In this document: positions 1-20,282 of the stretch, piece by piece
Position numbering within the stretch: the stretch's first letter is position 1
How the letters are laid out: each line of letters begins with the position of its first letter
Assembly: GCF_001718415.1 (NCBI RefSeq)
Contig: NZ_CP013377.1
Location: forward strand, 1,178,001-1,242,000
Source: Burkholderia pseudomultivorans
GTDB taxonomy: Bacteria; Pseudomonadota; Gammaproteobacteria; Burkholderiales; Burkholderiaceae
DNA: 64,000 bases
Direction of reading: 5' to 3'
Made by a program: the position numbers and the translations under genes
The notes under the pieces: model-generated
Database searches by the model: none
What the model saw: the letters and a program-made list of their open reading frames with translations, nothing else
Told to the model about the DNA's origin: nothing

Positions 1-203
1 GCAAGGCATCGATCGTCTACTTTGTCGTTTATTTTGCCTGCGGTATTTTCCTGAACCGTACGGTGCTGCGAAATCTGATCACGTTTCATCCGGTCTATAA
101 CACGTTGCACAACGTATTCTCGACCAAAGTCCGCGCGCTCCTATTCTGGCCGATTTCCTATCTTGTGCTGATTGGCAAGATTGCGGTAGTCCGCGCGATC
201 TGA
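1..203 (+). CDS. 3' end of a hydrophobic membrane protein (partial)
   Basis: Only the last 66 codons or so are inside the window, ending at the TGA at 201-203. The visible residues are strongly hydrophobic: one segment near the window edge (ASIVYFVVYFACGIF) and one at the C-terminus (ALLFWPISYLVLIGKIAVV), separated by a short polar stretch. This suggests an inner-membrane protein or an enzyme with two C-terminal membrane segments. I do not recognise the family from this fragment. It converges on the SDR gene downstream. Confidence 0.6.
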   Translation, partial: KASIVYFVVYFACGIFLNRTVLRNLITFHPVYNTLHNVFSTKVRALLFWPISYLVLIGKIAVVRAI

Positions 204-16450: not shown

Positions 16451-16605
16451 GATGTCGGGGGCGCGATATCGTTGGAATGGCCGATAAGGTAGCAAAAACG
16501 GCGGCGTCAGGCTCAGGCACAGCCTGAGACCCGATTCGCCGCTTCCGCATTTTCGGGGCGCGATCGATGGCCGATCATGGCCGGACATCAATGGGGGAGA
16601 CTGTC

Positions 16606-16716
16606 ATGCCTGTCGATCCGTCCTGGGGCGTGTCTTTCAAGATCGCGCTGCATGTGTTTTTTCTCTGCGTCGGCATTGCGTGGGCCTGTTCGGAGCTGAT
16701 CGACTGGCTGCGCTGA
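16606..16716 (+). CDS. 36-residue single-span membrane peptide
   Basis: A short frame, MPVDPSWGVSFKIALHVFFL then CVGIAWACSELIDWLR, with one hydrophobic helix (about residues 10-29) flanked by charged ends. It has a strong ribosome site (GGGGGAGA, 5-6 nt before the ATG). An in-frame ATG at 16591 exists but overlaps that ribosome site. Third codon positions are GC-rich as in real genes here. Function unknown; small membrane peptides of this form often modulate a larger membrane protein. Confidence 0.6.
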   Translation: MPVDPSWGVSFKIALHVFFLCVGIAWACSELIDWLR

Positions 16717-16963
16717 GTGCGCCGGCCGGTCGCGCGTTCCGGTCCCGCCGGGAGAAGGCATCGCTTGGCGATGAGCGGGAAAATCGTGCCGGACTCGCGC
16801 GCGCAGCCTGTCATATTTGCTTGAATCGATCGCGGCAGCCGACGAAAATCGCCATCGGCGCGTCTTTCGTGATCGTTTGTCATCATTGTTTGCATCCGGT
16901 TACACGTCGGCCGTTCCGTTTTTGAGATGCTTGAAAGATTGTCAAACCGGAGCACGATCGACC

Positions 16964-17824
16964 ATGGAAAAGCGCGAGATCAACCGCCATGCGGCACGGC
17001 TGTCGAGCCTGCTCGCCGTGCTCGCAATGGCCGGTTGCGCAAGCACGCAGTCGGTTCCGCCGAGCGACACGCTGGCAGCGCAAGCGCCGTCGCCGACGAG
17101 GCCGTCCGCCGCCGCCCAGCCGGCGGCCGCACCGGCCGCGCCCGCCCCGGCGCCGATTCTCGTCGCGCACGACTATGTCGTGAAGCGCGGCGACACGCTG
17201 ACGGGCATCGCAAAGGCGAACGATTGCAGCATCGACGACCTGCGCCTGTGGAACAAGCTCGGCGCGCGCAGCAGGCTGCGCATCGGGCAGACGCTGCGCA
17301 TCGTCACGCAGGACACGCGGCAGGCGCCCGCCGCGCAGCCGACTGCCCCGGCCACCCCGGCCGCCGCGAGCGATGCGGCGGCGGCCGTTCAGCCGGGCGA
17401 ATCGACGGCGAGCGACCGAAAGGTCGTCCAGCAGACGAAGCGCCATGCGAGCGGCGTGGCGCTGGCGTGGCCCGCGCACGGCAAGATCGTCGACGGGTTC
17501 CGGCCGGGGCAGAACCGCGGGATCCAGATCGCGGGCCGGGCGGGCGACCCGGTGCGCGCCGCGGCCGACGGACGCGTGATGTACGCCGGCACGGGCCTGA
17601 ACGATTACGGCAGCCTGATCATCGTCCAGCACAACGCGGACTTCCTGACCGCCTATGCGCACAACCGCAAGCTGCTCGTGAAGACCGGCGACGTCGTGCA
17701 TCAGGGCGACGAGATCGCCGAGATGGGCGATCTCGACAATTCGCGCGTCGCGCTGCTGTTCGAGGTCCGGCGCGACGGCAAGCCCGTCAATCCGCTGCCG
17801 TACCTGCCGTCGTCGCGCGGCTAG
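16964..17824 (+). CDS. NlpD-like lipoprotein, LysM plus degenerate LytM (M23) domain
   Basis: 286 residues. The signal peptide ends in lipobox AMAGC (Cys25), followed by a Pro/Ala linker, a LysM domain (HDYVVKRGDTLTGIAKAND, about 66-112) that binds peptidoglycan glycan strands, a second linker and a C-terminal M23/LytM domain (about 165-280). The end, VNPLPYLPSSRG, matches the NlpD type. Catalytic metal ligands are missing: the usual HLHFEVR is ALLFEVR and the first His is absent. Like NlpD and EnvC it is therefore probably an activator of periplasmic N-acetylmuramoyl-L-alanine amidases at the septum rather than a hydrolase. The main nlpD is usually next to rpoS; this is likely a paralogue. 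Confidence 0.9.
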   Translation: MEKREINRHAARLSSLLAVLAMAGCASTQSVPPSDTLAAQAPSPTRPSAAAQPAAAPAAPAPAPILVAHDYVVKRGDTLTGIAKANDCSIDDLRLWNKLGARSRLRIGQTLRIVTQDTRQAPAAQPTAPATPAAASDAAAAVQPGESTASDRKVVQQTKRHASGVALAWPAHGKIVDGFRPGQNRGIQIAGRAGDPVRAAADGRVMYAGTGLNDYGSLIIVQHNADFLTAYAHNRKLLVKTGDVVHQGDEIAEMGDLDNSRVALLFEVRRDGKPVNPLPYLPSSRG

Positions 17825-18033
17825 AAGCGGGAACCGGCCCTCCGAGGCTGGAACGCAGGCACCGTCGCTGCTACGCTAGGGTCTGTTCACGCGGCCTCGC
17901 GAAAGCGGGCCGACAAGGCGTCTGCACGGTGCGCGGCGAGGGCCGCGCGGGCCGGCCGCCGGCGTGAACGGGCGCGCGTCGCCGACGCGCGCGTTGCTCG
18001 ATGCCACCGCTTCCGACCGAATACCATTCATCC

Positions 18034-18936
18034 ATGGATCATTCCTCGACACGCCGCTCGCTGTTGCTCGCCGCCGTCGCCGCGCCGTTCGTCGCCGCGT
18101 GCGCACCGGCTCCCGTCGCCGACCAAGGACGCGTTCATGCCGCGCAATCCGACCTCGCCGCGCTCGAAAAAGCGTCGAACGGCCGGCTCGGCGTCGCCGC
18201 GCTCGACACCTCGAACGGCGCGCGCGTCGCGCACCATGCGCGCGAGCGCTTCCCGCTGTGCGGCACGTACGCGGTCGTCGCGGCCGCGGCGGTGCTCGCG
18301 CGCGGCTCGCTCGACGCGACGCTGCTGCCGCGCCGCATCCTGTATCGCCGCTACGACGTCGTCGCCGGCTCGCCCGTCACGGAAAACCACGTCGACACCG
18401 GCATGACGATCGCGCAGCTGTGCGCGGCAATGCTGCAGTCCGGCGACAAGGGGGCGGGCAACCTGCTGATGGGCGTGCTCGGCGGCCCGCAGGCCGTCAC
18501 GTCGTTCGCGCACGAAAGCGGCGACACGACGTTCCGCCTCGATCACTGGGAGCCCGAGCTGAATGCGGCCGCGCCCGGCGACGAACGCGACACGTCGACG
18601 CCGGTCGCGATGGTCGACATGCTGCAGCGGCTGCTGCTCGGCGACACGCTGCTGCGCGAGCCGCAGCGCGCGCAGCTGATCGAGTGGATGGTCGGCGGCG
18701 CGCGCGGCGCGGCCGGCATCGCCGCGGGCGTGCCGCCCGGCTGGCGCGTCGCGGACAAGGCCGGCACGGGCCGCTACGGCACGACGAGCGACGTCGCGGT
18801 CGTGTGGCCGCCGTCGCGCGCGCCGCTCGTGATGGCCGTATCGTTTACGCAGCCGCGCGCCGATGCGGCCGCGCGTGCGGATGTCGTCGCGTCCGCCGCG
18901 CGCATCGTGGCGAACGCGCTCGCCACGACGGCCTGA
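18034..18936 (+). CDS. class A beta-lactamase homologue lacking the catalytic serine (pseudoenzyme)
   Basis: 300 residues, closely similar over its whole length to the PenA/PenB beta-lactamases of Burkholderia as I remember them. It has a Tat-like RRSLLL start with lipobox VAAC (Cys23), so a Tat-exported lipoprotein is likely. The active site is altered at five places: SxxK is CGTYA (Ser70 to Gly77 here, Lys73 to Ala80); SDN is GDK (Ser130 to Gly137, Asn132 to Lys139); KTG is KAG (Thr235 to Ala243). Glu166/Asn170 (WEPELN) and Lys234 are kept. The frame is intact and the codons normal, so this is a maintained protein without beta-lactamase chemistry, perhaps a beta-lactam or peptidoglycan sensor/binder. 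The LysR gene follows 94 bp later on the same strand. Confidence 0.9.
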   Translation: MDHSSTRRSLLLAAVAAPFVAACAPAPVADQGRVHAAQSDLAALEKASNGRLGVAALDTSNGARVAHHARERFPLCGTYAVVAAAAVLARGSLDATLLPRRILYRRYDVVAGSPVTENHVDTGMTIAQLCAAMLQSGDKGAGNLLMGVLGGPQAVTSFAHESGDTTFRLDHWEPELNAAAPGDERDTSTPVAMVDMLQRLLLGDTLLREPQRAQLIEWMVGGARGAAGIAAGVPPGWRVADKAGTGRYGTTSDVAVVWPPSRAPLVMAVSFTQPRADAAARADVVASAARIVANALATTA

Positions 18937-19030
18937 GCGCCGGCCTCGCGCAAAGCCGGCGTTTGCCTTATCGTGTCGGTCAGCGCACGCCGGTGCCGGC
19001 GCGCGATTCTTCCGCCCACTTCGCCTCGTC

Positions 19031-19903
19031 ATGCGCCGACTTCCGCCCCTGCACGCGCTGCAGATCTTCTCGATGGTGGCCCGCCACCGCAGCTTCACGC
19101 GCGCGGCCGAGCAACTGTGCATCACGCAGGGCGCGGTCAGCCGGCAGATCCAGACGCTCGAGGCGCACTACGGTTTTCCGCTGTTCCGCCGGCATGCGAA
19201 GGGCCTCACGCTGACGGCCGAGGGCGAGCAGCTGCTGCCGGTGGTCAACGAAAGCTTCGCGCGGATCGAGGACATTTCGCTGAAGCTCACGCGGCAGCGC
19301 ACCGATCTCGCGCTGAAGGTGCCGACCTGCGTGATGGGCTGGATGCTGCCGCGCATCATGCGCTTCCAGGGCGAGCATCCCGACCTGCATGTGCAGATCA
19401 CGACCGCATGGCAGCACGTCGTCGATTTTTCGAGCGAGCCGTTCGATGCGGCGATCGTCTACGGCACTTCGCCGGGTGCGGGCGTATTCGCGCTGCCGCT
19501 GTTCGACGAGCGGCTCACGCCGGTATGCGCGCCCGGGCTGAGGCAGGCGTCGCCGCTCGACGCGATCGACGATCTCGCGCGCCACACGCTGCTGCATCCG
19601 ACCCGCGACCATCGCGACTGGCGCGCATGGCTCGATCACGCAGGCGCGCGCACGATCGACGCCGAGCGCGGGCCGACCTTCGACACGCTCGATCTGGCGA
19701 CCAATGCGGCGATGCAGGGGTTCGGCGTCGCGATCGGCGACGTGACGCTGGTCGACGACGACGTCAGCGCGCGCCGGCTCGAACGGCCGTTCGACATCGT
19801 GCTCGAGACCGGCGCGCGCTACTTCTTCGTCTATCCGGAGCACAGCGCCAGCCAGCAGAAGATCCGCGCGTTCAGCGACTGGATCGCGCGCCACCGCGAC
19901 TGA
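19031..19903 (+). CDS. LysR-family regulator, GcvA/AmpR-like
   Basis: 290 residues starting MRRLPPLHALQIFSMVARHR, with the helix-turn-helix QLCITQGAVSRQIQTLEAHY and the RHAKGLTLTAEGEQLLPVV segment typical of the GcvA/AmpR/PenR branch. AmpR/PenR members regulate beta-lactamases in response to peptidoglycan fragments. Here the gene lies downstream of and co-directional with a beta-lactamase homologue, whereas ampR and penR are normally divergent. A functional link is therefore plausible but not shown. Confidence 0.9.
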   Translation: MRRLPPLHALQIFSMVARHRSFTRAAEQLCITQGAVSRQIQTLEAHYGFPLFRRHAKGLTLTAEGEQLLPVVNESFARIEDISLKLTRQRTDLALKVPTCVMGWMLPRIMRFQGEHPDLHVQITTAWQHVVDFSSEPFDAAIVYGTSPGAGVFALPLFDERLTPVCAPGLRQASPLDAIDDLARHTLLHPTRDHRDWRAWLDHAGARTIDAERGPTFDTLDLATNAAMQGFGVAIGDVTLVDDDVSARRLERPFDIVLETGARYFFVYPEHSASQQKIRAFSDWIARHRD

Positions 19904-19946
19904 CGCGGGCGCGCCGAACCGCTGCGCGGCGCGCGCCCGGCCGTCG

Positions 19947-20282
19947 TCACTGGTACGTGACGACGGCGATCATCGGCGCGCGATTGCGGCCCGGCCGGTC
20001 AGGTAAAACGATTGCGCGCGAAGCCTGGGTAAAGGTCGTGGTCCTGATCGCCTGCATGCTCGCCGCATCGACGAACGCGATCTGTCCGGTCGCCGGGCGC
20101 GGGCAGTCGGGGCGCACGTGCGCGGGCGCGGTATCGGGCGCGTCGAGCGCAAACGAGCAGGGCGGCTCGACGATCATGCCGGTGAAGTGAATGATGCCGG
20201 ACGCGCCGGCGGCAAACGACGCGGATGTGCCCAGAAGCGAGGCAGCCAGCACGAACGAGGCGGCGATCAGGCGATGCTTCAT
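19947..20282 (-). CDS. secreted type 1 pilin-like small protein
   Basis: 111 residues with a signal peptide (cleavage near SFA-AG, residue 24). The mature N-terminus GIIHFTGMIVEPPCSF closely resembles the start of chaperone-usher fimbrial subunits (G-x-I-x-F-x-G-x-I-V-E-x-x-C). A second Cys (RPDC) may pair with the first. At under 90 mature residues it is shorter than a typical pilin (about 150), and no chaperone or usher gene is nearby. It could be an orphan fimbria-related periplasmic protein. It converges with the LysR gene. Confidence 0.7.
   Translation of the reverse strand: MKHRLIAASFVLAASLLGTSASFAAGASGIIHFTGMIVEPPCSFALDAPDTAPAHVRPDCPRPATGQIAFVDAASMQAIRTTTFTQASRAIVLPDRPGRNRAPMIAVVTYQ

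What the first reader, a model, noticed from the sequence alone, without database searches (positions are those of the whole stretch)
18034..18936. Intact class A beta-lactamase homologue with five active-site substitutions
The protein aligns end to end with Burkholderia PenA-type beta-lactamases as I know them, including the Tat-lipoprotein signal, but Ser70, Lys73, Ser130, Asn132 and Thr235 are replaced by Gly77, Ala80, Gly137, Lys139 and Ala243. Glu166, Asn170, Lys234 and the fold-defining segments are kept, the frame is open and codon use is normal. This pattern suggests selection for binding, not hydrolysis: a lipoprotein pseudoenzyme that might sense or sequester beta-lactams or muropeptides. 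A GcvA/AmpR-like LysR gene follows.
Basis: partly seen in the sequence, partly recalled or inferred. Interest (0 to 1): 0.75.

Follow-up and report, generated by a model that had tools for sequence, protein, structure and literature searches.

The report
PenA*: conserved dead beta-lactamase lipoprotein
This gene encodes a protein with the shape of an antibiotic-destroying enzyme but without its catalytic residues; it is already known as PenA*, and here it looks more strictly kept than the working enzyme, with a newly fixed stretch outside the old active-site motifs that hints at a new job.

Summary
Observation confirmed, but already in print: the protein at 18034-18936 is PenA*, the inactive Burkholderia cepacia-complex homologue of B. 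pseudomallei PenA (PMC7157819: no nitrocefin hydrolysis; role unknown). Added here: orthologues in 53 of 65 genus genomes, none with an internal stop, one clade (25 rows). Nine other genomes have a full-motif PEN gene at the same nlpD1 locus; two have none there. PenA* is under stronger purifying selection than the full-motif PenB of the same genomes (omega 0.087 against 0.121, 14 genomes). Constraint has moved: residues 93-107 (Ambler 86-100) are the most conserved 15-residue window in PenA* (rank 1 of 242) and almost the least in PenB (rank 240); RRY at 98-100 is in 57 of 57 PenA* rows and 0 of 162 Ser70-bearing relatives. Synonymous change there is ordinary. Best reading: a lipoprotein pseudoenzyme repurposed for binding through a new surface beside the old cleft. 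Beta-lactam binding is not supported but not excluded; decay is contradicted.

The parts
18034..18936 (+). penA* (class A beta-lactamase-fold pseudoenzyme lipoprotein, 300 aa)
   Evidence: Foldseek top hits 5ihv (88% id) and 5hx9 (84% id)
18034..18102 (+). Tat (RR at residues 7-8) lipoprotein signal, lipobox VAAC, Cys23, +2 residue Ala
   Evidence: pattern (recalled consensus) in 57 of 57 PenA* rows, +2 residue T29/A15/S13
18262..18273 (+). G77-T-Y-A80 in place of S70-x-x-K73
18310..18354 (+). residues 93-107 (Ambler 86-100), newly constrained segment ending RRY
   Evidence: rank 1 of 242 windows in PenA*, 240 of 242 in PenB; RRY 57 of 57 against 0 of 162; ordinary synonymous change
18367..18369 (+). 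Gly112 at Ambler 105 (Tyr or Trp in 51 of 53 PenB)
18442..18450 (+). G137-D-K139 in place of S130-D-N132
18550..18564 (+). E173-P-E-L-N177, retained omega-loop motif 166-170
   Evidence: E 53 of 53, N 52 of 53
18715..18717 (+). Gly228 at Ambler 220 (Arg in 159 of 162 Ser70-bearing relatives)
18757..18765 (+). K242-A-G244, drifting remnant of KTG 234-236
16964..17824 (+). nlpD1: LysM plus LytM/M23-fold protein, amidase-activator type
   Evidence: Pfam PF01476 and PF01551; found beside PenA* in 52 of 53 orthologue genomes, the other locus ends 388 bases upstream
19031..19903 (+). GcvA-like LysR regulator, not PenR
   Evidence: found in 53 of 53 orthologue genomes

Best explanation
The gene is PenA*, the positional orthologue of the chromosomal PenA of the B. 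pseudomallei group, in a block nlpD1-penA-lysR. SHOWN: the PenA* proteins form one clade without the catalytic residues; each of the 53 genomes that has it also carries a separate full-motif PEN gene (PenB); and it is held under strong protein-level purifying selection with its Tat-lipoprotein signal intact. INFERRED: the catalytic residues were lost once; after PenB took over hydrolysis, PenA* was repurposed as a non-catalytic, outer-membrane-anchored binding module that uses the intact class A fold as a scaffold and a newly fixed segment (Ambler 86-100: L86, L96, R98, R99, Y100, with R63) as its contact surface, probably for another envelope protein. The partner is unknown; NlpD1 or its amidase is a candidate only.
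For: One clade, support 100/99 (25 PenA* rows of 93). The nlpD1 locus carries a full-motif PEN gene in 9 other genomes. With motif columns masked, 13 PenA* rows and those 9 form one side of a branch, support 98/90. Omega 0.087 against 0.121 for PenB, 0.138 for nlpD1 and 0.045 for the LysR (14 genomes each, chosen from 43 for divergence); NG86 sum ratio 0.205 against 0.320, PenA* higher in 84 of 903 genome pairs. Segment 93-107: mean entropy 0.118 (rank 1 of 242) against 0.756 (rank 240) in PenB of the same 53 genomes; RRY 57/57 against 0/162. Positions 86, 96 and 100, mostly polar, small or charged in relatives, are Leu, Leu and Tyr in 57 of 57; control clades gave 0 (PenB) and 2 (nlpD1-locus PEN) signature sites against 6. 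Synonymous change there is ordinary (rank 79 of 249, 44 genomes). Fold intact: AF2 mean pLDDT 87.3; 5ihv TMt 0.96.
Against: No partner or phenotype is known. PMC7157819: the B. ubonensis PenA deletion left MICs unchanged (its authors add that MICs without end points are hard to read). PMC10412643 (passages): none of the other 20 beta-lactamase-fold proteins mattered for fitness of K56-2 in the conditions tested; I could not check that PenA* is among them. Two genomes (G025, G052) keep nlpD1 and the LysR with no bla gene between, so it is not essential to that block. Window 93-107 was picked after seeing the data. The six substituted catalytic positions alone are not significantly more conserved than random sites (P 0.17). 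A PenA*+PenB grouping is not rejected (p-AU 0.132). Surface exposure of 86-100 was not computed. Mean site entropy over the whole mature part is the same as PenB's (0.434 and 0.436), so the stricter selection shows in omega, not in that measure.
Confidence: 0.55

Rival explanations
1. PenA* binds beta-lactams or muropeptides non-covalently in the old cleft and senses or sequesters them.
For: Fold and omega loop kept: E166 53/53, N170 52/53. A set of 14 nucleophile-zone and omega-loop sites is conserved (mean H 0.107, P 0.0019). An engineered S70G CTX-M-9 has been crystallised with benzylpenicillin (title of 3huo), so losing Ser70 alone does not abolish binding.
Against: Positions 70, 73, 105, 130, 132 and 220 are all replaced, and 234, 235 and 237 drift. 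The most conserved window is elsewhere. PenA* is not induced by the beta-lactams tested and its deletion did not change MICs in B. ubonensis (PMC7157819).
Confidence: 0.12
2. A new catalytic activity built on E166, K132 and the retained omega loop.
For: E166 invariant 53/53; K132 in 50/53 and Arg in 2 of the other 3.
Against: 132 is Gln in one orthologue and 70/73 are small residues; B. ubonensis PenA* showed no nitrocefin activity from E. coli periplasm (PMC7157819). I saw no report of another substrate in the text read.
Confidence: 0.1
3. Partner of the neighbouring NlpD1: PenA* modulates amidase activation (a special case of the best explanation).
For: nlpD1 adjacent in 52 of 53 genomes; [quoted passage not shown] pseudomallei (PMC6045580, passages).
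Against: The adjacency is shared with a full-motif PEN gene in 9 other genomes, so gene order is not evidence of a link specific to PenA*. nlpD1 persists without any bla beside it in 2 genomes.
Confidence: 0.15
4. A decaying gene not yet lost, or kept only for transcription of its neighbours.
For: Catalytic loss; KTG drift.
Against: No internal stop in 53 of 53; omega 0.087, lower than PenB; a protein-level constrained segment with ordinary synonymous change.
Confidence: 0.03

Closest known systems
PenA* of Burkholderia cepacia complex bacteria (Somprasong et al. 2020, PMC7157819; it credits Becka et al. 2018 for noting it first in B. multivorans, a paper not held here)
   Same: Beside nlpD1; same missing SXXK, SDN and Y/W105; same retained EXXLN; same noncanonical K(T/R/A)G; same Tat plus lipobox; separate PenB.
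   Different: Nothing essential; this is that protein in a further species. I saw no mention of its R220 loss, dN/dS or the 86-100 signature in the sections read.
PDB 5IHV (B. ambifaria) and 5HX9 (B. vietnamiensis); 'inactive beta-lactamase group, GKN subgroup' of PMC12073871
   Same: 88% and 84% identical over the aligned part; both GTYA and GDK.
   Different: Species only.
B. pseudomallei/B. thailandensis PenA (PenI, PenL, PEN-Bpc) and PenN
   Same: Same nlpD1 locus, same Tat-lipoprotein layout (9 of 9), same fold.
   Different: Those have SxxK, SDN and KTG (9 of 9); PenA* scores 357.7 on the PEN-Bpc model, below its cut-off of 580.
PenB with PenR
   Same: Class A fold; same genome (G000:C1:776045-776872).
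   Different: Full motifs (53 of 53 PenB), separate locus, divergent PenR (649 bits against a cut-off of 625 in the window's genome).

Membership tests
PenA* (Bcc inactive PenA) | gene next to nlpD1 | tested here: met
PenA* (Bcc inactive PenA) | lacks 70SXXK73, 130SDN132 and Y/W105; keeps 166EXXLN170 | tested here: met
PenA* (Bcc inactive PenA) | Tat signal, lipobox, +2 residue not Asp | tested here: met
PenA* (Bcc inactive PenA) | separate PenB with divergent PenR in the same genome | tested here: met
PenA* (Bcc inactive PenA) | no beta-lactamase activity, not inducible | not testable with these tools
   reported for B. ubonensis in PMC7157819
class A beta-lactamase (as an enzyme) | class A fold | tested here: met
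class A beta-lactamase (as an enzyme) | S70xxK73 | tested here: not met
   GTYA
class A beta-lactamase (as an enzyme) | S130DN132 | tested here: not met
   GDK
class A beta-lactamase (as an enzyme) | E166 and N170 | tested here: met
class A beta-lactamase (as an enzyme) | K234-T/S-G | tested here: not met
   KAG
PEN-Bpc PenA | NCBIfam blaPEN-Bpc curated cut-off (580) | tested here: not met
   357.7 bits
PEN-Bpc PenA | position beside nlpD1 | tested here: met
decaying pseudogene | broken frames or omega near 1 among orthologues | tested here: not met
beta-lactam sensor of BlaR1/MecR1 type (recalled) | acylatable serine in SxxK | tested here: not met

The most novel reading that the evidence does not exclude
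A resistance enzyme was converted wholesale into a non-catalytic envelope-protein receptor: once PenB relieved it of hydrolysis, PenA* fixed a new contact surface (R63 plus Ambler 86-100) next to the loop that BLIP-type inhibitor proteins grip on class A enzymes, and now works as a lipoprotein regulator of a peptidoglycan enzyme or its activator. The move of constraint from the KTG strand to this segment is the fingerprint.
Probability: 0.2. Interest if true: 0.65.

Novelty: already known. Interest (0 to 1): 0.38.

Why it matters
PMC7157819 states as an open question why Bcc bacteria maintain PenA*. The data here make it testable: selection acts on the protein, more strictly (by omega) than on the full-motif paralogue, and points to particular residues outside the old motifs. 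It also matters for annotation: the protein scores 292.1 bits on NCBIfam's generic class A beta-lactamase model, above its cut-off of 200, and orthologues are indeed named 'class A beta-lactamase' in public sources, so a dead homologue can be counted as a resistance enzyme.

Tried and rejected
Pseudogene decay: contradicted by open frames and omega. DNA-level constraint on segment 93-107: not supported, synonymous change is ordinary. PenR-type regulation by the adjacent LysR: the gene scores far below the PenR cut-off; PMC6045580 also reports that deleting the two flanking LysR genes in B. pseudomallei altered neither penA expression nor susceptibility (passage). A terminator/attenuator between nlpD1 and penA*: none in the gap by pattern scan (2 terminator-like sites in 16600-20000, both outside the gap; shuffles give 1.5); folding the gap gives z -1.36, which decides nothing. 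A more basic protein: not so, median pI 6.49 against 8.79 for PenB. PenA*-like proteins outside Burkholderia: in a sample of 349 family genomes, 34 genomes of other genera had a match at E 1e-75, none above 58% identity; I read the motifs of 7 of those 34, all full-motif. Literature: searches; I saw no dN/dS or 86-100 signature for PenA* in the listings or in the parts of papers that I read, but supplements could not be read and Becka 2018 is not held.

Full report
WHAT IS THERE. Window 18034-18936 (+) encodes a 300-aa protein. It matches Pfam Beta-lactamase2 (117 bits) and NCBIfam's generic class A model (292.1 bits, cut-off 200), and falls below the cut-offs of the five PEN models shown (best PEN-Bpc 357.7 against 580). 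Upstream lies nlpD1 (LysM plus M23/LytM domains, 16964-17824); downstream a GcvA-like LysR gene (19031-19903). The same genome has a full-motif PEN gene elsewhere (G000:C1:776045-776872, 53% identity) with a divergent neighbour that passes the PenR model (649 against 625).

IT IS KNOWN. PDB holds two orthologues, 5ihv and 5hx9. PMC12073871 (passages and section 17) lists 5IHV as an inactive beta-lactamase. PMC7157819 (sections 3, 4, 8, 9, 10 and the first part of 13; passages) names the protein PenA*, reports its motifs in five Bcc species, and for B. ubonensis reports that it is not induced, gives no ampicillin growth or nitrocefin hydrolysis in E. coli, and that its deletion leaves MICs unchanged. 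Its authors say they do not yet know why it is maintained. [quoted passage not shown] pseudomallei.

DISTRIBUTION AND ORIGIN. Of the 120 proteins listed (1637 found; P0001-P0027, P0027 partial) lack S70, K73, S130 and N132; the other 93 have S70, K73 and S130, one of them with Ser at 132. Of 65 genus genomes, 53 carry a PenA* orthologue at 68% identity or more, none with an internal stop. nlpD1 was found beside it in 52 of 53 (the other locus ends 388 bases upstream) and the LysR in 53 of 53. All 53 also carry a full-motif PEN gene elsewhere. Of the 12 genomes without PenA*, 9 have a full-motif PEN gene beside nlpD1 (L154-L162), 6 of them with the LysR gene and 3 (L160-L162) without it; L159 passes the PenN model and L156 the PEN-Bpc model (the other seven were not run). 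Two (G025, G052) have nlpD1 directly beside the LysR with no bla gene between, and a full-motif PEN gene elsewhere next to a divergent gene whose best NCBIfam match is PenR (527 and 532 bits, below the cut-off of 625). One (G057, 82% complete) cannot be judged. So in 64 judged genomes a full-motif gene at the nlpD1 locus and a second PEN gene elsewhere (50% identity or more) were never found together; this rests on a handful of events, not 64. G014 has in addition a distant class A relative (40% identity), as do three PenA* genomes. PenA* is one clade on a 93-row tree (25 PenA* rows, 100/99). With 23 motif columns masked, 13 PenA* rows and the nine nlpD1-locus genes lie on one side of a branch (98/90); grouping PenA* with PenB instead is 9.5 log units worse but not rejected (p-AU 0.132). 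On a LysR gene tree the 15 PenA* genomes included (of 53) form one group (100/100).

SELECTION. On a fixed tree of 14 genomes (chosen for divergence from 43 with all four genes), omega is 0.087 for PenA*, 0.121 for PenB, 0.138 for nlpD1 and 0.045 for the LysR. By counting over 903 pairs of 43 genomes, dN/dS is 0.205 for PenA* and 0.320 for PenB, and PenA* exceeds PenB in 84 pairs (the pairs are not independent). Mean site entropy of the mature part is equal in the two (0.434 and 0.436, 53 genomes each).

WHERE THE CONSTRAINT LIES. In PenB the six beta3 sites (234-238, 244) are invariant; in PenA* their mean entropy is 0.617 against 0.426 for all sites. The 14 sites of the nucleophile and omega zone are conserved as a set in PenA* (0.107, P 0.0019); the six substituted catalytic positions taken alone are not notable (0.228, P 0.17). 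The lowest-entropy window of PenA* is residues 93-107: rank 1 of 242, while in PenB from the same genomes it ranks 240. Its tail RRY (Ambler 98-100) occurs in 57 of 57 PenA* rows (53 genomes plus P0024-P0027, partly redundant) and in 0 of 162 Ser70-bearing rows (161 of them full-motif). With a strict rule (95% or more in the clade, 5% or less outside) PenA* has six signature sites, R63, G70, L86, L96, Y100 and G220; PenB has none and the nine nlpD1-locus genes two. Clustering of the non-catalytic signature sites gives P 0.029, 0.013 or 0.003 depending on the rule. Synonymous change in the segment is ordinary (0.178, mean 0.217, rank 79 of 249), so the constraint is on the protein. The window was chosen after looking, so the contrast with PenB is the evidence, not the rank alone. 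By Ambler number the segment runs up to residues 104-105, the protruding loop whose residue 104 BLIP contacts in TEM-1 (PMC8363833, passages); that it forms an exposed patch here is inference. The predicted fold is confident (mean pLDDT 87.3, residues 91-100 at 96) and matches class A enzymes.

MECHANISM. Shown: no catalytic motifs, one clade, the same locus as a full-motif enzyme gene in related species, a co-resident full-motif PEN paralogue, strong protein-level selection, intact lipoprotein export signals. Inferred: a binding module whose working surface has moved from the cleft to the 86-100 rim. Open: the partner. NlpD1 is a natural candidate, but gene adjacency is shared with the full-motif gene, and nlpD1 survives without any bla beside it in two genomes. 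Beta-lactam binding cannot be excluded, since an engineered S70G enzyme was crystallised with penicillin (title of 3huo), but replacement of 105, 130, 132 and 220 and the drifting KTG speak against it.

VERDICT. A correct and careful observation of something already described (PenA*); what is added here is the breadth, the selection measurement and the relocated constraint. Interest moderate.

Noticed in passing
L085/L172 (PenB of the window's genome, G000:C1:776045-776872), L108 and L103: Three of 53 PenB proteins (L085, L108, L103) have no cysteine at the lipobox, so PenB there may be soluble; PMC7157819 describes the lipobox as conserved in the proteins it examined. Four other rows failed my strict pattern for other reasons (three read NAC, one is called from an internal start).
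   Followed up: partly
L163, L164 (G025, G052): nlpD1 and the LysR gene lie about 118 bases apart by match coordinates, with no bla gene between; a full-motif PEN gene sits elsewhere beside a divergent PenR-like gene.
   Followed up: yes
L167, L168 (another genus of the family): A LytM-domain gene lies next to a full-motif PEN-like gene, so the nlpD1-bla pairing may predate Burkholderia; the gene tree does not group these two with the Burkholderia nlpD1-locus genes.
   Followed up: partly
window 18034-18936: The dead protein passes NCBIfam's generic class A beta-lactamase cut-off (292.1 against 200), an annotation trap.
   Followed up: yes
window 18001-18033: The frame is open to an upstream ATG at 18001, and by eye no clear ribosome-binding site precedes 18034; orthologues begin with the same M-x-x-S-x-x-RR start as the 18034 reading.
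   Followed up: no
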